Position numbers and translations under genes: made by a program. A stretch of 64,000 nucleotides of DNA, taken from the IMG/VR virus record IMGVR_UViG_3300047299_000128, positions 1-64,000 of that record. The stretch is one strand, 5' to 3'. Below the pieces are notes generated by a model. The model was given only the letters and a program-made list of their open reading frames with translations, did no database searches and was not told the DNA's origin. The number at the start of each line of letters is the position of its first letter. The first letter of the stretch is position 1. The DNA comes from a virus. This document shows positions 47,092 to 56,380 of this stretch, piece after piece.

Positions 47092-49188
47092 ATGAATTAT
47101 AAACTTTCCGCAGTAGCCGTTGCCGTAGCAGTATTTTCCGGTAGTGTGCAAGCACAGTATTTTGGCAATCGCGAAACTCAGGCACAGCAACAATACCTAA
47201 ATGCTATCGGTGCCCCGCAGGCCTGGGCACGTGGCATTACAGGTAAAGGTGTTACGATTGCAATCATTGATAACGGCTTTGATCCAACACACTCTGATAT
47301 TGAAAAGAACGTGATTGGTACTGTTAACCTTTCTGCACTTAGAACAGTGCCGGGTTTGCACGGAACACAAATGGCGTCGATTGCAGCTGGTCGGTTGGAC
47401 AAGTATGGCACAGTTGGCGTGGCACCAGAAGCTAGTTTGTTGCTAGCTCAAGTGACTAGTAGCATTAGCAGTGCTAATGGCACCGCAGGTGCAGGCATCA
47501 ATATGGATGTTGTTCTCAAAAGCATGACATGGGCAGAAGCCAACGGCGCAAGTGTTATTAACTTGAGCTTGGGTTCTAACTACGATTCGACATTTAAAGC
47601 AAAGACGGTTGAACTCACACCTGGTTCGGGTGTATACCGTGCTTATTCTGCTTATGGTAATACCAAAACAGGTACGCTGGCCGCATTGTACGGCACTACT
47701 TACCAATCGGTAACTAACTTTGTCAATACAACCAAAAAGTCGGTTATCGTAGCTGCCGCAGGCAACTCGGCTAGTGCATATGCTCAATTCCCTGGCGCAT
47801 TTGCAACTCAAACAGACGCCGCCGGCAATTTGCTACTTGGTGGTCGTGTGCTGATTGTAGGTAATGCCGCATCCGACGGTAAAGGCGGATGGACGATGAA
47901 CGCACAAAGTAGCCGAGCAGGCAGTTTGTGTTCTAATATTGTAGGCAATACTTGCCAAGACAAATACTATGTAAAAGACTTTTATGTAGTTGCACCTGGT
48001 ACAGGTATTTGGGGAGCAGTCCCGGACGCCGCACGTAATGCACGAGGTATCGCAGAAGGCGGCACAGATGGTATCGGTGGAACATCCGGTACTAGCCCAG
48101 CAGCCGCAATGGTTTCGGGTGGCGTTGCACTGATTAAACAAGCGTGGCCGCAACTTACAGCCGCACAAGTCGTTCACTTGGTCAAGACTACGGCTACTGA
48201 TATGGGAGCACCCGGTGTTGATGCAGTGTACGGTTATGGTATGGTAAACTTTGACAAGGCAACACAACCTCAAGGCCTGTTGAAGATTGCTAACTTTAAA
48301 GGTTACGGACTTTCTACTGCCCAAGCAGTTACTACAACTGGTTTGGCTACTAGCGGTGCCGCAAGCCTTAAAACAAGTAGTGTGCTTAAAAACGTGCAAG
48401 GCTTGGACAGTTACAACCGCAACTATGCAATGGACATGACTCGTGCGACTGTAGCAAATCCTGTTATGACATATCGTGCTAGTAGCAGTTACTTGGCAAT
48501 GAGCCCGCAAGGCTATCACGAAGTTGCAGTACCTGTAAATCAAAATTACAGTTTTAAACTAATGCAAAGTCAAGCAGGTAACGCTACAGAAGTTACTTAC
48601 CATCAACGTGATACTAGCTACAGTTTCCAATTTGGTAGCATGCAAGAAAAGTCAGGCTTCTTGGGCACGTATGGCGCTGGAATGATGGCACTAGGCGACA
48701 GTGCTACTAGCTATATGCAACTTGGTACTGAACATAAGTTTGGAGACTTTACAGCATTTGGCGCATATGGTATGGGTGTAACGAATGCAGGAAGTGTGGC
48801 AGACAGCATGGTGCAATTAAACAGTCGTATTGTTAGCCAAACATGGCGCTTGGGTGTTGCTAAGAGTAATGTGTTCCAAAACAAAGACTCGGTTAGTGTA
48901 AGTTTGGTTAGCCCGGTAAGTGTACGTCGAGGTACTGCGACAGTGACAGCGGTAACTGATTATGAATTTACCCAAACAGATGACGGCGCAGATGCTCGCA
49001 GTATTGTTAGCACCGAAACAGTTAGTTTGGTTCCAACTACTCGTCCGCTGGACTTGGTGCTTGGTTATACTGTGGTAGGCAAGGGTTATGATCGAGTTAG
49101 CCTGAACGTAGCACGCCAATTTAATGTAGGCGGAGTTGCTGGTAGCACATCTAGCAGTGTAGGCGTAATGGCAGTTAAATCATTCTAA
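47092..49188 (+). CDS. Secreted subtilisin-like (S8) protease with autotransporter-like C-terminus
   Basis: A 698-residue protein with a signal peptide (residues 1-22, cut after VQA). The S8 triad is complete: Asp60 (IAIIDNGFD), His90 (GLHGTQMA) and Ser332 (GTSGTSP), with oxyanion Asn225 (AAAGNS). Residues about 400-698 are beta-rich with alternating pattern and end in Phe, the hallmark of an outer-membrane barrel, so it may be an autotransporter like those of Proteobacteria. It would act on the host envelope or outside the cell. It is very unusual for a T4-like phage and looks host-derived. Confidence 0.85.
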   Translation: MNYKLSAVAVAVAVFSGSVQAQYFGNRETQAQQQYLNAIGAPQAWARGITGKGVTIAIIDNGFDPTHSDIEKNVIGTVNLSALRTVPGLHGTQMASIAAGRLDKYGTVGVAPEASLLLAQVTSSISSANGTAGAGINMDVVLKSMTWAEANGASVINLSLGSNYDSTFKAKTVELTPGSGVYRAYSAYGNTKTGTLAALYGTTYQSVTNFVNTTKKSVIVAAAGNSASAYAQFPGAFATQTDAAGNLLLGGRVLIVGNAASDGKGGWTMNAQSSRAGSLCSNIVGNTCQDKYYVKDFYVVAPGTGIWGAVPDAARNARGIAEGGTDGIGGTSGTSPAAAMVSGGVALIKQAWPQLTAAQVVHLVKTTATDMGAPGVDAVYGYGMVNFDKATQPQGLLKIANFKGYGLSTAQAVTTTGLATSGAASLKTSSVLKNVQGLDSYNRNYAMDMTRATVANPVMTYRASSSYLAMSPQGYHEVAVPVNQNYSFKLMQSQAGNATEVTYHQRDTSYSFQFGSMQEKSGFLGTYGAGMMALGDSATSYMQLGTEHKFGDFTAFGAYGMGVTNAGSVADSMVQLNSRIVSQTWRLGVAKSNVFQNKDSVSVSLVSPVSVRRGTATVTAVTDYEFTQTDDGADARSIVSTETVSLVPTTRPLDLVLGYTVVGKGYDRVSLNVARQFNVGGVAGSTSSSVGVMAVKSF

Positions 49189-49398
49189 ATGGAACTAGAC
49201 CTACACGGAGTTAGGCACTATGAGGTAGACAGGGTTGTAGAAAACTTTGTCTACCTTAACCAATCTAGTGTGCCATTATCTATTATTTGCGGTAATAGCC
49301 TGCGTATGATGCAGTTAGCCAAAGAAACTTTAGATCGAATAGGCTGTGAATACTACGAACCGAGATTTGGTGTGATCTGCATAATTCGATTAAATTGA
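49189..49398 (+). CDS. Small Smr-domain-like protein
   Basis: A 69-residue protein beginning MELDLHGVRHYEVDRVVENF, the LDLHG signature of Smr domains (MutS2 C-terminal nuclease-like), followed by 'PLSIICGNSLRMMQL'. Similar short Smr proteins occur in marine T4-likes. It may act as a small nuclease. The start codon directly follows the protease stop; its own stop TGA lies inside the next -35 box. Confidence 0.75.
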   Translation: MELDLHGVRHYEVDRVVENFVYLNQSSVPLSIICGNSLRMMQLAKETLDRIGCEYYEPRFGVICIIRLN

Positions 49399-49423
49399 CA
49401 CAAATTGGTTATTATTGTATAAT
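49395..49423 (+). promoter_or_regulatory. Early promoter TTGACA-N17-TATAAT, predicted leaderless
   Basis: Boxes at 49395-49400 and 49418-49423, spacer start CAAATTGG. The next ATG (49430) lies seven bases after the -10 box with no Shine-Dalgarno. Confidence 0.82.
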
Positions 49424-49429
49424 ACTTGT

Positions 49430-49609
49430 ATGATGAATAAAGAACCCGTGGAACTATTCTGTACCGAAGACGATGATGGGCTTTGGCTTGTCTGGTTCCC
49501 GCATCCTCTTGGCGGTATGAATGTGCTAGAAACTTTTAACAACGAAACCGAAGCTCGTGCATTTTGGCAAGAGCAATTGGATTCGGCAGATTTTGGAGAT
49601 AAAGAATGA
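49430..49609 (+). CDS. Small acidic protein ahead of the nuclease-helicase-methylase gene
   Basis: A 59-residue protein (MMNKEPVELFCTEDDDG...) rich in Trp and Phe, with unknown function. The early promoter places the transcript start at the ATG. Its stop overlaps the start of the large fusion gene (ATGA), so translation is coupled and it may be a partner or regulator of that enzyme. An upstream TTG could extend it by five residues but overlaps the -10 box. Confidence 0.65.
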   Translation: MMNKEPVELFCTEDDDGLWLVWFPHPLGGMNVLETFNNETEARAFWQEQLDSADFGDKE

Positions 49610-52600
49610 GTTATGTTAAAAGTCCAGTAGAACTTGGCCTTAAGACAAATTGCCAAGGCATCTACATCGAAACTAATAGTCCTAGAATCGAAGGTCTGCT
49701 AGGTACAGGTTATCTAGAATTTGGTATTGGTGACACTCGTGAAGATGCACAATACAGTACCATTGCAAGCCGAATGAAGGGTCACGAAAGCTCTAAAAAT
49801 CTGGGCTGGCAACATTATCTCTTAGATTCTATCCCAACGCCTGGATATCGAGATTATGCATTGCATAAAGAAGTTCGGCAATCATTTGCGGCACAACATA
49901 AGGACCCAATTACCGGTAAGCGAAACGAAGTTTTTCGTGTAGCGGTAGAAGAGATGTTGGTCCAACAATTTGTTAAGTCTAAGGATTTTGAACCTATCCG
50001 TATTTGGTTGACTGAAAAAGTTCGTAAGTGTGCGGCCAAACTGAATCCCAATCATGAGAAACAGGCAGTGACTAAGCGTGATATTCAGATTCTTGTTATT
50101 AAGAAAATCTTGTCTACTCTGCGACAAAAGGGTCTAGTCACTAACTTCGTTTGCGAACTTGCCGCTCGTATCGGTAAGACTATTTTGTTCTTATCTCTTG
50201 CAAAAGAAATGCGAGAAGAATTCGGTCATGAAGCCATGTTTGTTATGGCCTATGGCGTTGGCTTGAGCGTTAAAACATCTTACAAAGACGAATGTGCAAA
50301 ATACAGCGACTTTGACATGATGCAGTTTATCGATGCCGCTGATAATGATGCCGAAAGTCAATATAAGCAAGCTATTGCAAAAGGCAAAATGCCTGTAGTG
50401 TTTATCAGCCTTAATCCCGACGCAGAAGAAAAATATGAATGGATTAATCAACTAGCAGGTACCTATATTGCCCTGCTAGAAGAAACCGACTTTGGCACTC
50501 ATACAGATAGTCAAGTAGAAAAAGTTGATTACATTTTAGAAAACAAAACAGCTACTCGTATCAATGCTAGTGGCACTAATATTGGTCGACTGGCTAAGGC
50601 GTTTGGCGAGAATGCCATTGATGAGATTATTAGCGTTCCCTACTGTATGGTAGAACAAGATCCAAGCATTCCTAATGTAGTAGTGCGCCGATTCTACAAT
50701 ATGTTGTTTAATAGTCGTATCAATAAACTACTAGAAGACTTTGACAAGGATCTGTTGCCTAACATTACAAAGATCTTGTCTAAGCCTTTGAGTCAGCAAA
50801 AGTTTATTAGTGCATTGTTCCAAGATATCTTTGGGTATCAACCTATCTACGGATTTAATATCAGTGACTGTGCTGGTGAAGAAATTAAACACTCAATGTT
50901 GTTTGTTAATATCTCTAAGCAAGCAATGGATCAACTTGCAGAAGTCATTGAAAAGGCATGCCCTGAGCATAAGGTTCTAATCCTCAACAGCTACTATACT
51001 GACAACAAAGAAGCCGAAGGTGATACCAAAGAAGAACTAGTTCGCCTACAAAACAGATATTATGAAGACCGTGACAAACTGCTAGTGATCACTAACATGA
51101 TGGGCACTCGCAGTTATAGCATTCCGGAGATTCAAGCATGTTTGTTTATGCAAGAAGGCGGAGATGTCTATCCTTACATGCAGAAGTATAGTCGTTGCCT
51201 TACACCCGGTTATGGTAAAAAGTTTGGTCACATCTTTGACTTTGCGTTTGATCAGAGCAAGACTCGTAATACTGTAATGAGTGTTGCAGTAGAAGCGGCA
51301 TTATTGATTCGTCAAAAAGGTAAAACTTATCCCGACGCAGTTCGCGAAGTGTTGAATAGTGTCAACATTAAGGATATGGTTTCTGGCAACTGGATCGATG
51401 CTGACGAAGTTATCAAGCAGTTCGAAGACAACAATAAGTTGTTGGAGATTGCAAACGCACATACACGGATTACCATCGAAGATCTTACTTCTGAAGAGAT
51501 TGAAGCATTTGGAGAGTTGGCTAAACGCTCTTCTGGAAGTAAGGCAGAAAAGTCTAAGATTGATAAAGTTGTTGCTACTGGTAAGACTTTTGATTCTGGT
51601 AATACTGCCTCTGGTAGACCAAAAAAAAATCCTCTTAAAGCAATCGTAGAAAAAGCCATTCGCATGATTAACGGAAGTGCTACCACTGTGCTAGCCTTAA
51701 GCAATTATCAAGGAGAAAGTTTCCTTGAGTGTGTAGATATCATCGATGCTAGTGCAGAAATGAGCCGTGAGTTTGCAGAACTATATGGCGTATATCCCGA
51801 TACAATTAAGCGGCTTGCAAATCGCCTAGAGATTTCTACGCTAGACATGATTGTTAGGATGAGTAAATATAACAACAAACAGAAGCACATCGAGAACAAT
51901 GCACTGGCTATTCTTAAAGATGATCCAAAACTTTGGTTTGATATCTTTGGTAATCGAGAACTAAAGCGTTTTATTAAGAGTAAACATTGCAAACGGATTC
52001 TTGTAGTAGCAGGCGGCCATGGTTCCGAGATCGATGTTCTTGTGGACATGTTTGGTGTTGAAATTGTAGACAAGATTGTGTATAATGACAAATACAGTTT
52101 TCTCTGTAATCAGATTAAACGCAAGTATCCTACTATTGAAGTAGTTAAAGGAGACTTTACAGAATTGGAGTTTAGTATGAAATTTGATGTAGTAGTAGGG
52201 AATCCTCCTTATCAGGATTCTAATAATGATAAGAGAATGTTATGGAATCAAATTCTAGACAAAGCGACCGAAGTTACTAACAACAATGGTTATATTGCGA
52301 TGGTCACACCAACAACCTGGCTTACTGCAAAAACAAATATCCACAATAGTTATAAAATGTTTGAAGAAAAGCAAGTAGAGCGAGCAGTCATTTTTGATAA
52401 AAATGACAAACCGTTTGATGAAGGAACCAGCGTTTCTTATACCATTACTAAAAACATAAAACGAACAGCTCTTACTCCATTGTATTTTGCACAATACTCT
52501 GCGGGAGTAGAAAATCATGTTGCAGATATTGATATCTCTAAAGATAAAATTTGGCCAGGCCAACTTACACCTGTGAATATTGCTATACACAATAAACTTC

Positions 52601-53073
52601 AAACTCACAAAAAGATTAAATTCTTAAAGAGCTGTGAGTTCCATAATCAGAAACTTAAAACAAAAAAGATGGTATCTGACACTAAAGATTCTGTATTCCA
52701 ATACACACATCATGTTAGTGCCGCTATTACAAGATACACTAATACTAAATTTAGTGCCCACGATACTTGGAAAGTAATGGTCCCTGTTACATCGACTATC
52801 GATAAAGCAGTAATTGATAATAATTGCGGCCATGGAGAGGACATGCTGAGTCTGTATGTTAAAGATGAAAAAACTGCGTTAAATATCAAAAGTCTTTTTA
52901 ATACTCGATTTTATAAATTTATAGGTATCTTATATAAAAGCGGCAGAAATCAGCCATTGCAAAATCTATTTCCCGTAATGGATTTTACAAAAGTTTGGAC
53001 TGATGCAGAACTATACGCTTATTTTAGTCTGAAGCAAGAAGAAATTGACTATATCGAAGCCAATGTTAAGTAA
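49606..53073 (+). CDS. Fusion of putative nuclease, SF2 helicase and N6-adenine methyltransferase
   Basis: A 1155-residue protein. Residues about 15-95 resemble a GIY-YIG/T5orf172-like nuclease (LGTGYLEFGIGDT, RMKGH, YALHKEVRQSF). Residues about 180-560 form an SF2 helicase: Walker A-like LAARIGKT, an acidic motif LLEETDFGTHT, SGTNIGR and YSRCLTPGYG. Residues about 800-900 hold a methyltransferase with glycine motif AGGHGSEID and the catalytic Asn-Pro-Pro-Tyr (866-869). This layout resembles single-chain restriction-modification enzymes. A phage copy could modify its own DNA or attack host or rival DNA; that is inference. Confidence 0.78.
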   Translation: MSYVKSPVELGLKTNCQGIYIETNSPRIEGLLGTGYLEFGIGDTREDAQYSTIASRMKGHESSKNLGWQHYLLDSIPTPGYRDYALHKEVRQSFAAQHKDPITGKRNEVFRVAVEEMLVQQFVKSKDFEPIRIWLTEKVRKCAAKLNPNHEKQAVTKRDIQILVIKKILSTLRQKGLVTNFVCELAARIGKTILFLSLAKEMREEFGHEAMFVMAYGVGLSVKTSYKDECAKYSDFDMMQFIDAADNDAESQYKQAIAKGKMPVVFISLNPDAEEKYEWINQLAGTYIALLEETDFGTHTDSQVEKVDYILENKTATRINASGTNIGRLAKAFGENAIDEIISVPYCMVEQDPSIPNVVVRRFYNMLFNSRINKLLEDFDKDLLPNITKILSKPLSQQKFISALFQDIFGYQPIYGFNISDCAGEEIKHSMLFVNISKQAMDQLAEVIEKACPEHKVLILNSYYTDNKEAEGDTKEELVRLQNRYYEDRDKLLVITNMMGTRSYSIPEIQACLFMQEGGDVYPYMQKYSRCLTPGYGKKFGHIFDFAFDQSKTRNTVMSVAVEAALLIRQKGKTYPDAVREVLNSVNIKDMVSGNWIDADEVIKQFEDNNKLLEIANAHTRITIEDLTSEEIEAFGELAKRSSGSKAEKSKIDKVVATGKTFDSGNTASGRPKKNPLKAIVEKAIRMINGSATTVLALSNYQGESFLECVDIIDASAEMSREFAELYGVYPDTIKRLANRLEISTLDMIVRMSKYNNKQKHIENNALAILKDDPKLWFDIFGNRELKRFIKSKHCKRILVVAGGHGSEIDVLVDMFGVEIVDKIVYNDKYSFLCNQIKRKYPTIEVVKGDFTELEFSMKFDVVVGNPPYQDSNNDKRMLWNQILDKATEVTNNNGYIAMVTPTTWLTAKTNIHNSYKMFEEKQVERAVIFDKNDKPFDEGTSVSYTITKNIKRTALTPLYFAQYSAGVENHVADIDISKDKIWPGQLTPVNIAIHNKLQTHKKIKFLKSCEFHNQKLKTKKMVSDTKDSVFQYTHHVSAAITRYTNTKFSAHDTWKVMVPVTSTIDKAVIDNNCGHGEDMLSLYVKDEKTALNIKSLFNTRFYKFIGILYKSGRNQPLQNLFPVMDFTKVWTDAELYAYFSLKQEEIDYIEANVK

Positions 53074-53728
53074 AGTAATTGATCACATTCGCAACCGCAG
53101 TTACATGAGCGGTGTAGATCGAGAGAAGTCTAGGGTAAAGGCAACAGGAGAAGTCTTTACTCCGACTCCTCTTGTGCAGGAAATACTAGATCAATTGCCC
53201 GCTGAAGTGTTTACTGATCCTACTAAAACTTTTCTAGACCCAACTTGCGGTGACGGTCAGTTTCTTGGAGAAGTTTTAATCCGTAAGATGGAGAATGGCT
53301 CAACATTTGAACAAGCATTGTCTACTGTATACGGCGTTGACTTGATGATTGATAATGTAGACTTGTGTCGTGAACGATTGCTCTGCGGCAGGGAAGATCT
53401 GCGTCATATTGTAGAAAAGAATATAGTGTGCTATAATGGCTTGGAATACGATTTCGAATTTTCTAGAAGAAAAAACATAGAAGTTAAGCATGAAAATAAA
53501 GTAAGGAAAGATGCAGAACGTGCAAGAAAGAAAGCAGAAAAAGAATTAGAAGCGGCAAGAAAGAAAGCAGAAAAAGAAAAGTTAAAAATAGAAAAACTTA
53601 AAACAGAAGCAAGGAAAGTTATATGGAACTTGATGGTTCTTAAAACAGGAAAAGCACCAACAGAGACTATAATTGAACGGGAATTAAGAAAACGATTTCC
53701 AGATGTAAAAGGCAAAACTGCTCACTAA
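53063..53728 (+). CDS. N6-methyltransferase-like protein lacking the catalytic NPPY
   Basis: A 221-residue protein. It starts with the classical N6-methylase opening TGEVFTPTPLV and a SAM-binding motif Asp59-Pro-Thr-Cys-Gly-Asp-Gly-Gln-Phe67. After 'GVDLMIDNVDLCRERLL' the expected NPPY motif is missing; instead a Lys/Glu coiled coil follows (residues about 145-180). It overlaps the end of the fusion enzyme and may be a regulatory or SAM-binding partner, or a truncated methylase. The ATG at 53063 is chosen over an upstream TTG. Confidence 0.72.
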   Translation: MLSKVIDHIRNRSYMSGVDREKSRVKATGEVFTPTPLVQEILDQLPAEVFTDPTKTFLDPTCGDGQFLGEVLIRKMENGSTFEQALSTVYGVDLMIDNVDLCRERLLCGREDLRHIVEKNIVCYNGLEYDFEFSRRKNIEVKHENKVRKDAERARKKAEKELEAARKKAEKEKLKIEKLKTEARKVIWNLMVLKTGKAPTETIIERELRKRFPDVKGKTAH

Positions 53729-53755
53729 TCCTAGACTAAACATCTAGGATTTTTT
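53727..53755 (+). terminator. Rho-independent terminator after the methylase pair
   Basis: AATCCTAGA and TCTAGGATT form a perfect nine-base-pair stem around a seven-base loop and end in a T run. It contains the stop codon region of the upstream gene. Confidence 0.82.
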
Positions 53756-53762
53756 ATTTTTA

Positions 53763-53895
53763 AAAGTTAAATAAACATACTCCAGGTCACCGGAGTCGCT
53801 TCCTCCACTCATAGTAGTGTGCAAATTCCAGGGAGCCCAGCTGAGTGCAATGCTCAAATGGTAGGCGATCCTTCTATTCCAGAGATCGTCAACGG
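53763..53895 (+). other. Non-coding region with four small hairpins
   Basis: About 200 bases without a supported gene. Visible pairings are ACTCC/GGAGT (53779-53796), CACT/AGTG (53806-53819), TGAG/CTCA (53842-53856) and GGCGATC/GATCGTC (53864-53890). A minus-strand ORF here has no support. Being more GC-rich than the AT-rich genes around it, it could be a structured small RNA or a relic of another gene. No tRNA shape fits. Confidence 0.35.
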
Positions 53896-53933
53896 CGGTG
53901 GCACATTTTTTTAAACACAAAGGAATGTCCAAC

Positions 53934-54925: not shown

Positions 54926-56380
54926 ATGACATCGTGTACAATACATTTACGCGACGAAGTAAATATCAAAATATCCAATTTAGAAGTTGCTACTCGTCGT
55001 CGTTTAGAAAAACAATTTAAATTCTTTCAACCATGGGCTTTTCACAGTCCCGCTTATAAACTAGGACGCTGGGACGGGTGCGTTAGTTTCTTCTCACTCG
55101 GGGGCGCAAGTTATTTTAATTTATTAGAACAAATATTGCCTACGCTAGTAGATGAAGGTTATCATATAGAAATTGATGACCAAAGGGCGCAACATAACTT
55201 TACATTTACTCCTGTTCACGAAGAAACACATGCACAAACTATTTGGCCTAAAGGACATCCAAAAGCAAGTGAGCCTGTTATGCTACGAGACTACCAAGTA
55301 AATGCAGTTAATGAGTTCTTAAACAATTTACAATGCGTACAAGAAATTGCTACGGGTGCTGGTAAAACGGTTATGACAGCTACGCTGAGTAAAAGTGTAG
55401 AAGCATATGGACGCAGTATTGTTATTGTACCTAACAAGGACTTGGTAAAACAAACTGCCGAGGATTATGTGCTATTAGGTTTAGATACAGGCGTTTACTT
55501 TGGCGACAGAAAAGAAACAGGCAAAACGCATACTATATGCACTTGGCAAAGTTTAAACAGTTTACAAAAAAGATTCAAGGATGGAGAAAGTCCCGTTAGT
55601 TTGGAAGACTTTGCAGAAGGTGTAGTTGCATTAGTAGTCGACGAAGTTCATCAAGCCAAAGCCGACGTACTTAAACAATTACTAACAGGCCCATTTGCCA
55701 ACGTACCTATTCGCTGGGGACTAACTGGTACTATCCCTAAAGAGGACTCGGATAAAGTCACGCTACTATCTACATTGGGTCCTGTTATCAATAAAATTGC
55801 CGCAAAAGACTTGCAAGATCTTGGCGTGCTGGCCAATTGCAACGTTAACATTATGCAAGTGCAAGACACGGTAGAATATAAAAACTATCAAGAAGAACTT
55901 ACATACTTAACAACAAACAAAAATAGACTGGATTATATTGCTGGTTTTATTCAAGAATTATCTGCAACAGGAAATACATTGGTATTGGTTGATAGAGTTA
56001 AGTGTGGAGAAATGCTAGTAGAACGCTTACCAGACAGTTCTTTTGTAAGCGGTGCAATGAAAACAAATGATAGAAAGGATCAATATGACGAAGTTAAAAC
56101 GGCAAATAACAAAATTATTGTGGCTACTTATGGCGTGGCTGCTGTTGGTATCAATATACCCCGTATTTTTAATCTTGTTCTTATTGAACCCGGAAAGAGC
56201 TTTGTTAGAGTTATCCAATCTATTGGCCGCGGTATTAGACGGGCTGAAGACAAAGATAGTGTAGAAATTTGGGACTTAACTAGCAGTGCAAAATTTAGTC
56301 GCAGACATATGGCAACTCGTAAAAAATATTACGACGAAGCTGGGTATCCATATAAAGTACAGAAAGTAAAATTACCATGA
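54926..56380 (+). CDS. uvsW: Recombination and branch-migration helicase UvsW
   Basis: A 484-residue SF2 helicase. Walker A is ATGAGKT (residues 142-148) and the DExH box is Asp239-Glu-Val-His242. The motif VI 'QSIGRGIRR' and the N-terminal domain with 'FKFFQPWAFHSPAYKLGRWDG' match T4 UvsW. It resolves branched recombination intermediates and R-loops. The length fits (T4: 503). It seems to start without a leader, and its stop overlaps the next start (ATGA). Confidence 0.9.
   Translation: MTSCTIHLRDEVNIKISNLEVATRRRLEKQFKFFQPWAFHSPAYKLGRWDGCVSFFSLGGASYFNLLEQILPTLVDEGYHIEIDDQRAQHNFTFTPVHEETHAQTIWPKGHPKASEPVMLRDYQVNAVNEFLNNLQCVQEIATGAGKTVMTATLSKSVEAYGRSIVIVPNKDLVKQTAEDYVLLGLDTGVYFGDRKETGKTHTICTWQSLNSLQKRFKDGESPVSLEDFAEGVVALVVDEVHQAKADVLKQLLTGPFANVPIRWGLTGTIPKEDSDKVTLLSTLGPVINKIAAKDLQDLGVLANCNVNIMQVQDTVEYKNYQEELTYLTTNKNRLDYIAGFIQELSATGNTLVLVDRVKCGEMLVERLPDSSFVSGAMKTNDRKDQYDEVKTANNKIIVATYGVAAVGINIPRIFNLVLIEPGKSFVRVIQSIGRGIRRAEDKDSVEIWDLTSSAKFSRRHMATRKKYYDEAGYPYKVQKVKLP

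What the first reader, a model, noticed from the sequence alone, without database searches (positions are those of the whole stretch)
49606..53728. Phage-encoded nuclease-helicase-methyltransferase fusion plus a second, incomplete methylase
One 1155-residue chain combines a GIY-YIG-like N-terminus, an SF2 helicase and an NPPY N6-adenine methylase, like single-chain restriction-modification enzymes. Next to it lies a protein with the FTP and DPTCGDGQF methylase opening but no NPPY. A coupled 59-residue protein precedes it under an early promoter. This could be a self-modification system, an anti-restriction device or a weapon against other DNA.
Basis: partly seen in the sequence, partly recalled or inferred. 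Interest (0 to 1): 0.78.

Follow-up and report, generated by a model that had tools for sequence, protein, structure and literature searches.

The report
Phage restriction-modification enzyme with two-piece methylase
A large bacterial virus carries a motor-driven DNA-cutting-and-marking enzyme whose DNA-methylating part belongs to a widespread, apparently undescribed family in which the half that holds the methyl donor is encoded as a separate, shared subunit.

Summary
One operon (perfect sigma-70 promoter 49395-49423, terminator 53727-53751) encodes SMALL (59 aa), BIG (1155 aa) and HALF (220 aa). BIG's model is Type ISP-like: divergent GIY-YIG-like N-domain, SF2 translocase, coupler, gamma-class adenine methylase with NPPY and target-recognition domain (best PDB match LlaBIII). 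HALF is not a broken second methylase. It is a conserved stand-alone SAM-binding half (motifs X, I-III) that stops just before motif IV. Nearly 500 relatives lie in viral contigs, usually directly behind an NPPY gene. In relatives the NPPY-TRD half is attached to unrelated, degenerate or absent N-halves while HALF stays constant. Some NPPY genes begin at motif IV, so HALF is the only candidate SAM site; in cyanophage ACG-2014f the halves lie 101 kb apart; in Aeromonas phages they are fused in permuted order; actinobacterial chromosomes carry HALF / R+N-half / NPPY-TRD operons. A Shine-Dalgarno-like site precedes the motif-IV Met inside BIG-type genes more often than synonymous codons predict. 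I read this as an ATP-dependent restriction-modification-type system with a two-piece, exchangeable adenine methylase. Activity, HALF docking and nuclease competence are unproven; BIG's own N-half may also bind SAM.

The parts
49395..49423 (+). Consensus sigma-70 promoter TTGACA-N17-TATAAT; -10 ends 6 nt before SMALL's ATG
   Evidence: 12 of 12 matches; similar promoter at the same place in most relatives
49430..49609 (+). SMALL, 59 aa, unknown function; conserved acidic tail SADFGDEE-like; stop overlaps BIG start (ATGA)
   Evidence: conserved before BIG in 6 of 7 related contigs
49606..53073 (+). BIG, 1155 aa: N-domain, SF2 translocase, coupler, gamma adenine methylase, TRD
49606..49995 (+). 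BIG residues 1-130: divergent GIY-YIG / T5orf172-like N-domain, catalytic competence uncertain
   Evidence: GIY..FGIGDT..R..DYALH..NEVF pattern; weak profile match; beta-alpha pattern in model
50059..51330 (+). BIG residues 152-575: SF2 ATPase, two RecA lobes (motif I ARIGKT, motif II EETD, motif VI QKYSR)
   Evidence: RadD Z 22 and other SF2 proteins; motifs
51331..51897 (+). BIG residues 576-764: helical coupler-like region
   Evidence: AF2 secondary structure; whole-chain LlaBIII match
51898..52176 (+). BIG residues 765-857: in-chain N-half of the methylase (VVAGGHGSE, no FTP), called 'cis half'
52167..52170 (+). GGAG, Shine-Dalgarno-like, 6 nt before the internal ATG
52177..53070 (+). BIG residues 858-1155: NPPY-TRD half starting at internal Met MKFDVVVGNPPY; exchangeable module
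53066..53728 (+). HALF, 220 aa: SAM-binding half (FTP, DPTCGDGQF, motifs II-III) ending before motif IV, then charged helical tail
53727..53751 (+). Rho-independent terminator ending the operon
   Evidence: 9-pair stem plus T-run

Best explanation
The operon encodes an ATP-dependent restriction-modification-type machine whose adenine methylase is two-piece. BIG reads a DNA site with its TRD, can translocate with its SF2 motor, and carries a nuclease-like N-domain. HALF supplies a SAM-binding half (motifs X, I-III: strands 3-2-1 of the Rossmann sheet) that pairs in trans with NPPY-TRD halves (motif IV onward: strands 4-7 plus TRD). In the phage the likely role is to methylate the phage's own sites while the motor/nuclease part acts on unmethylated DNA of the host or of rival elements. 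Shown here: operon, domain order, family-wide split, constant HALF against interchangeable N-halves, genomes in which HALF is the only candidate SAM half, and non-random SD-like sites before the motif-IV Met. Inferred: physical pairing, methylation, translocation, cleavage, and the biological role. For the window itself, BIG's N-half keeps a G-H-G loop and may also bind SAM, so HALF's contribution there is less certain than in relatives without an N-half.
For: LlaBIII is the top structural match over the whole BIG chain (E 3e-21; Z 19.1, 750 residues, rmsd 14.1, probably from different domain placement). HALF has 495 relatives in IMG/VR; of 80 distinct ones, 59 have an NPPY gene within 1.3 kb upstream, usually overlapping, and several of the remainder have NPPY variants, are fused or are cut by the contig end. 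HALFs keep FTP in 76/80 and D[PNS]xxGxG in 77/80, while of 59 in-chain N-halves 8 are absent, 18 lack a GxG loop and 1 has both motifs. NPPY-TRD genes that start at motif IV: L089, L019, L071, S-CAM7 gene 75 and ACG-2014f gene 187, with HALF 101 kb away; all 35 phage records with that M half also hold HALF. Natural permuted fusions in Aeromonas phages. Module swaps: NPPY-TRD 90%, N-half 23%, HALF 81% (L015/L024); 83/27/87 (L034/L035); in BIG's clade the reverse, motor 74-88% but TRD 28-36%; the N-half type needs 37 changes on the NPPY-TRD tree against 43.4 in shuffles. Actinobacterial operons break exactly at the N-half/NPPY border. SD before the motif-IV Met 17 observed, 5.5 expected; 12 against 4.9 without the window's clade (P 0.0002); other internal ATGs 16 against 20. 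A related R branch pairs with a TRD-like protein and Mom.
Against: In the window BIG has its own N-half with GGHG, conserved 76-91% in its clade, and the model with it matches complete gamma methylases, so HALF may not be needed for SAM binding. The frame-joined NPPY-TRD-HALF model (pTM 0.57) matches known halves separately, but the tools give no coordinates, so docking is untested. The nuclease domain may be inactive. A few relatives have an intact N-half as well as HALF (L092, L102). The DNA target and methylation are unknown.
Confidence: 0.6

Rival explanations
1. BIG is a self-sufficient Type ISP-like enzyme; its own N-half binds SAM. HALF is an accessory: a dimer partner, allosteric regulator or stabiliser, in the manner of a catalytically dead methylase partner.
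For: BIG's N-half keeps GGHGSE and a motif-II acid and is conserved; the model matches complete gamma methylases; intact N-halves coexist with HALF in L092 and L102.
Against: HALF is the only candidate SAM half where NPPY genes start at motif IV; N-halves are swapped freely while HALF stays constant.
Confidence: 0.25
2. The system is a motor-coupled modifier or anti-restriction device with no cleavage: the N-domain is a dead GIY-YIG relative and the SF2 motor only remodels DNA or displaces host proteins while the methylase marks phage sites. (This concerns the role of BIG and is not exclusive of the two-piece methylase.)
For: The acidic residue next to the histidine of the nuclease motif is Ala/Ser in the window's clade; motif II is EETD instead of DExD; some phages keep M plus HALF without a recognised motor beside them.
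Against: Related R proteins in phages and bacteria carry clear T5orf172 domains (PF10544 1.6e-8), and the N-domain is conserved in the clade.
Confidence: 0.2
3. HALF is a decaying remnant or decoy of a full methylase without function in methylation.
For: It lacks motif IV and has a low-complexity charged tail.
Against: It is among the most conserved parts of the cassette (58-86% in viral relatives, motifs X and I nearly invariant), ends at the same place throughout the family and occurs in bacterial operons.
Confidence: 0.04

Closest known systems
Type ISP restriction-modification enzymes (LlaGI, LlaBIII; PMC4872093, PMC4666363)
   Same: Domain order nuclease-like / SF2 ATPase / coupler / gamma N6-adenine methylase / TRD in one chain; best PDB match over the whole chain
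   Different: N-domain GIY-YIG/T5orf172-like rather than Mrr; about 1155 residues rather than roughly 1500-1570; a separate conserved SAM-binding half follows; in relatives the chain is split into up to three genes plus HALF
Circularly permuted M.EcoKI-like adenine methylases of jumbo phages (PMC7824862)
   Same: A permuted single-chain version was noted in jumbo phages; the Aeromonas phage Ah1-type NPPY-TRD-HALF fusions here look like that kind (not checked against the cited accession)
   Different: The separate subunit, the constant HALF with interchangeable partners and the motor fusions are not described in that section
Naturally split methylase M.AquI (cited in PMC5944983)
   Same: Two polypeptides make one methylase
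   Different: [quoted passage not shown] here the split is between motifs III and IV of a gamma adenine methylase, with a spare N-half often kept in the chain
Type IIG / MTase_II models PDLC03626 and PDLC03375 of PADLOC
   Same: They match the R and M proteins of the bacterial relatives
   Different: They do not match BIG, and no model describes the three-piece arrangement
Mom DNA-modification systems (PF25680)
   Same: The same R motor family sits beside a TRD-like protein and Mom in other phages
   Different: Different chemistry; no HALF found in those operons

Membership tests
Type ISP | SF2 ATPase, coupler, gamma adenine methylase and TRD in one chain, in this order | tested here: met
   Foldseek and VIA match to 4xqk over residues 142-1137
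Type ISP | N-terminal Mrr-family (PD-(D/E)XK) nuclease | tested here: inconclusive
   No Pfam nuclease hit; pattern and weak profile match point to GIY-YIG/T5orf172 instead; N-domain not covered in the structural alignment
Type ISP | All activities in a single polypeptide, no separate subunit | tested here: inconclusive
   HALF is conserved behind BIG, but whether it is required is untested
Type ISP | ATP-driven translocation and cleavage between two unmodified sites | not testable with these tools
   Needs biochemistry
gamma-class N6-adenine methylase (BIG) | Motifs I to IV (NPPY) followed by a TRD in TaqI-like order | tested here: met
   PF07669; TaqI/CamA Z 19-20 over 765-1142
gamma-class N6-adenine methylase (BIG) | Motif X (FTP-like) in the same chain | tested here: not met
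   No FTP before the N-half in the window's clade
complete adenine methylase (HALF) | Catalytic motif IV (D/N/S)PP(Y/F/W) | tested here: not met
   Absent from HALF
GIY-YIG / T5orf172 nuclease (BIG N-domain) | GIY..YIG strands, Arg, and acidic/His motif | tested here: inconclusive
   GIY, FGIGDT, Arg, DxxxH and NE.F kept; acid two before His replaced by Ala/Ser
split (two-polypeptide) methylase | Two chains each lack part of the catalytic core and jointly supply it | tested here: inconclusive
   Met at sequence level in relatives without an N-half; for the window itself not shown, because BIG keeps an N-half
split (two-polypeptide) methylase | Reconstituted activity from the two chains | not testable with these tools
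   Needs expression and methylation calling

The most novel reading that the evidence does not exclude
A half-swapping switch: the NPPY-TRD chain, also made alone from the internal start at 52177, can pair either with the SAM-poor N-half tethered to the motor (site-reading and cutting state) or with free HALF (methylating state). One HALF could serve several NPPY-TRD chains, so target specificity is changed by exchanging that module alone.
Probability: 0.25. Interest if true: 0.87.

Novelty: new variant of a known kind. Interest (0 to 1): 0.72.

Why it matters
If right, hundreds of phage genes now called 'hypothetical protein' or 'DNA methyltransferase' are matched halves of one enzyme family, and a protein fold thought of as one unit is run in nature as interchangeable halves. 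It gives a directly testable way in which phages and some bacteria could change restriction-modification specificity by swapping one module, and it offers naturally split adenine methylases. It also links one motor family to two chemistries, methylation and momylation.

Tried and rejected
Frameshift or sequencing-error origin of HALF: rejected, since the same boundary recurs in dozens of contigs, complete phage genomes and bacterial chromosomes. Intein or intron: no sign; HALF ends at a fixed place with its own stop. HALF as a full methylase with an unusual motif IV: no (D/N/S)PP(Y/F/W). Programmed +1 frameshift between BIG and HALF: the +1 offset is common but the overlaps vary and other loci have +2 or gaps, so ordinary overlapping genes are simpler. 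Docking of HALF by AF2 on the frame-joined NPPY-TRD-HALF chain: folded, but only per-half structural matches can be read without coordinates. Several alignments for that job were discarded because MAFFT put methylase rows on HALF. phmmer of BIG against PDB found nothing. PADLOC models match only BIG's methylase part weakly. No Rfam family reaches its threshold in the operon. Literature searches found the permuted phage methylases but no description of this split; most subscription papers are not covered.

Full report
What is there. The window lies in an IMG/VR virus record of 74,740 bases. It encodes portal, major head protein, tail sheath and large terminase, so it is a contractile-tailed phage. 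Between a perfect sigma-70 promoter (49395-49423, 12 of 12) and a terminator (53727-53751) lie three overlapping genes: SMALL (59 aa), BIG (1155 aa) and HALF (220 aa). SMALL's stop overlaps BIG's start by 4 nt and BIG's stop overlaps HALF's ATG at 53066 by 8 nt. Seven viral contigs carry BIG at 65-81% identity. HALF follows it in all but the one contig that ends inside BIG, and SMALL precedes it in all but one. Most relatives also have a similar promoter before SMALL.

BIG. Pfam sees only the Eco57I-type methylase domain (2e-13). An AF2 model made from 37 aligned sequences (mean pLDDT 75.8, pTM 0.55) matches SF2 proteins over residues 152-745 (RadD, Z 22.0) and gamma adenine methylases over 765-1142 (CamA Z 19.9, TaqI Z 19.0). 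The best PDB match by Foldseek is Type ISP LlaBIII (E 3e-21; VIA Z 19.1, 750 residues, rmsd 14.1). LlaGI and LlaBIII consist of an Mrr nuclease, SF2 ATPase, coupler, gamma methylase and TRD (PMC4872093). The motor is unusual: motif II is EETD and motif VI is QKYSR. The N-domain keeps GIY, FGIGDT, an Arg, DYALH and NEVF. Other R proteins of the family have certain T5orf172 domains (PF10544 1.6e-8 in L128; phage type against bacterial type 98% probability), but the window's clade matches only at 36% (E 4e-4), with the acid two before His replaced by Ala or Ser. Nuclease activity is therefore open.

HALF. It holds motif X (FTP), motif I (DPTCGDGQF), II and III and ends before motif IV, then has a charged helical tail. 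It has 495 relatives in IMG/VR. In 80 distinct loci, FTP is kept in 76 and D[PNS]xxGxG in 77; two of the exceptions are full methylases caught by the search and two others carry an extra residue in the loop. An NPPY gene lies within 1.3 kb upstream in 59, mostly overlapping. Among the rest, several have NPPY variants or contexts that my pattern missed, several are fusions, several are cut by the contig end and a few are true orphans.

The partner's own N-half is expendable. Of 59 NPPY partners, 8 have no N-half, 18 have one without a GxG loop, 32 have some glycine loop and 1 has both FTP and the full loop by my patterns. On a tree of 64 NPPY-TRD halves, the N-half type needs 37 changes (shuffled labels 43.4), and absence of the N-half needs at least 5 on supported branches. 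Close pairs show the exchange directly: L034/L035, NPPY-TRD 83%, N-half 27%, HALF 87%; L015/L024, 90%, 23%, 81%; L042/L048, 59%, 22%, 77%. In the window's own clade the reverse happens: motor 74-88% and N-half 76-91%, but NPPY-TRD either 73-95% or only 28-36%. So the NPPY-TRD half is an exchangeable module with its border at MKFD-NPPY, and HALF is the constant part. G009 (L047) has five tandem M genes and one stand-alone HALF.

HALF as the only candidate SAM half. In cyanophage ACG-2014f (KJ019152) gene 187 starts MKFDVVIGNPPY directly behind an unrelated gene, and HALF (gene 51) lies 101 kb away. All 35 phage records that hold this M half also hold HALF; most are isolates of one species, so this is not 35 independent cases. 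In Aeromonas phages (Ah1 and relatives, 415 aa) NPPY-TRD and HALF form one chain in permuted order. Iyer and colleagues noted circularly permuted M.EcoKI-like methylases in jumbo phages (PMC7824862) but that section does not mention a split.

Bacteria. The one genome scan found HALF relatives on bacterial contigs. In Corynebacterium, Janibacter, Gordonia, Rhodococcus and Kribbia the order is HALF, then R (T5orf172-like start, SF2 motor, N-half at the C-end: TFADLFSTAGLF, a degenerate loop), then M starting M[ST]KKFDVVIGNPPY. The gene border is exactly the module border seen in phages. Other arrangements are HALF + M + R in Lachnospiraceae and others, and HALF beside a 1450-1488 aa helicase-methylase protein (ResIII-Eco57I, with a weak DUF4145 match) in Lactobacillus and Streptococcus.

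Internal start. In the window GGAG stands 6 nt before the ATG of MKFD (52177). Over 40 partners with an N-half and this Met, GGAG/AGGA/GAGG stands 4-10 nt upstream in 17, against 5.5 expected when synonymous codons are redrawn from local usage (none of 20,000 simulations reached 17). Leaving out the window's clade, in which I first saw it, gives 12 against 4.9 (P 0.0002). Six hundred other internal ATGs give 16 against 20. The other loci are not fully independent of each other, and NPPY genes without an N-half often lack such a site, so this supports a free NPPY-TRD chain without proving it. A relic of a former separate gene is possible.

Mechanism and doubts. In class-I methylases strand 1 (motif I) lies beside strand 4 (motif IV); HALF offers strands 3-2-1 and NPPY-TRD offers strands 4-7 (established fold knowledge). 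The frame-joined NPPY-TRD-HALF chain of the window (GCCA read as one step, an analysis device and not a claim about translation) folded with pLDDT 75.9 and pTM 0.57. Its first 290 residues match M.BseCI (Z 12.9) and TaqI from residue 99 on, and residues 324-424 match the SAM-binding part of RlmL (Z 8.4) and Trm14. The contact between the two cannot be read without coordinates. BIG's own N-half keeps GGHG and a motif-II acid and may bind SAM, so for the window the two-piece reading is likely, not shown. A related R branch (L173-L182, L196) stands beside a 290-aa protein distantly related to NPPY-TRD (profile probability 81%, NPPY lost) and, where it was scanned, a Mom protein (PF25680, up to 6e-36). 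This fits a recognition module that borrows its chemistry from a separate subunit.

Verdict. A Type ISP-like phage enzyme with an added, conserved SAM-binding subunit: a new variant of a known kind. The family-wide two-piece adenine methylase is the surprising part and can be tested with two genes in E. coli.

Noticed in passing
L173-L182, L196 (R genes e.g. L176:4982-7267): The same helicase-nuclease family sits in operons with a 290-aa NPPY-less TRD-like protein and mostly a Mom-like protein, i.e. a momylation version of the system.
   Followed up: partly
L015:474-2743, L026:2523-4777, L189-L195, S-CAM7 genes 53-54 (L009): The SF2 motor is encoded as two genes split between its two RecA lobes.
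   Followed up: no
L199:812-7850 (G009, about C1:3311-10349): Five tandem methylase genes with nearly identical N-halves and different NPPY-TRD parts, followed by a single HALF: looks like a specificity store.
   Followed up: partly
L133, L149, L155, L157, L160; L128, L124; L135, L140, L146: Bacterial operons with HALF plus R and M, not matched as a system by PADLOC or NCBIfam models; candidate defence systems.
   Followed up: partly
window 47092-49188: Subtilase (PF00082, 4e-30) with a signal-like N-terminus and a C-terminus ending in Phe like outer-membrane autotransporters, in a phage genome; 57% identical copy in L006. Phage records show only partial, under-60% identity matches.
   Followed up: partly
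window 53786-53902: Non-coding gap behind the operon folds into a closed multi-arm structure (-41.2 kcal/mol, z -2.1, 7 of 200 shuffles as low); no Rfam match. Possible small RNA.
   Followed up: partly
window 54926-56380: Second SF2 helicase, a phage DNA helicase of phrog_16 (8e-72); ordinary.
   Followed up: no
window 49423-49436: SMALL's ATG lies 6 nt after the -10 box, so its mRNA may be leaderless or the true start is further in.
   Followed up: no
L020:6608-6778, L025:7459-7632, L027:344-514: SMALL relatives also occur behind HALF instead of before BIG; its function and C-terminal SADFGDEE motif are unexplained.
   Followed up: no
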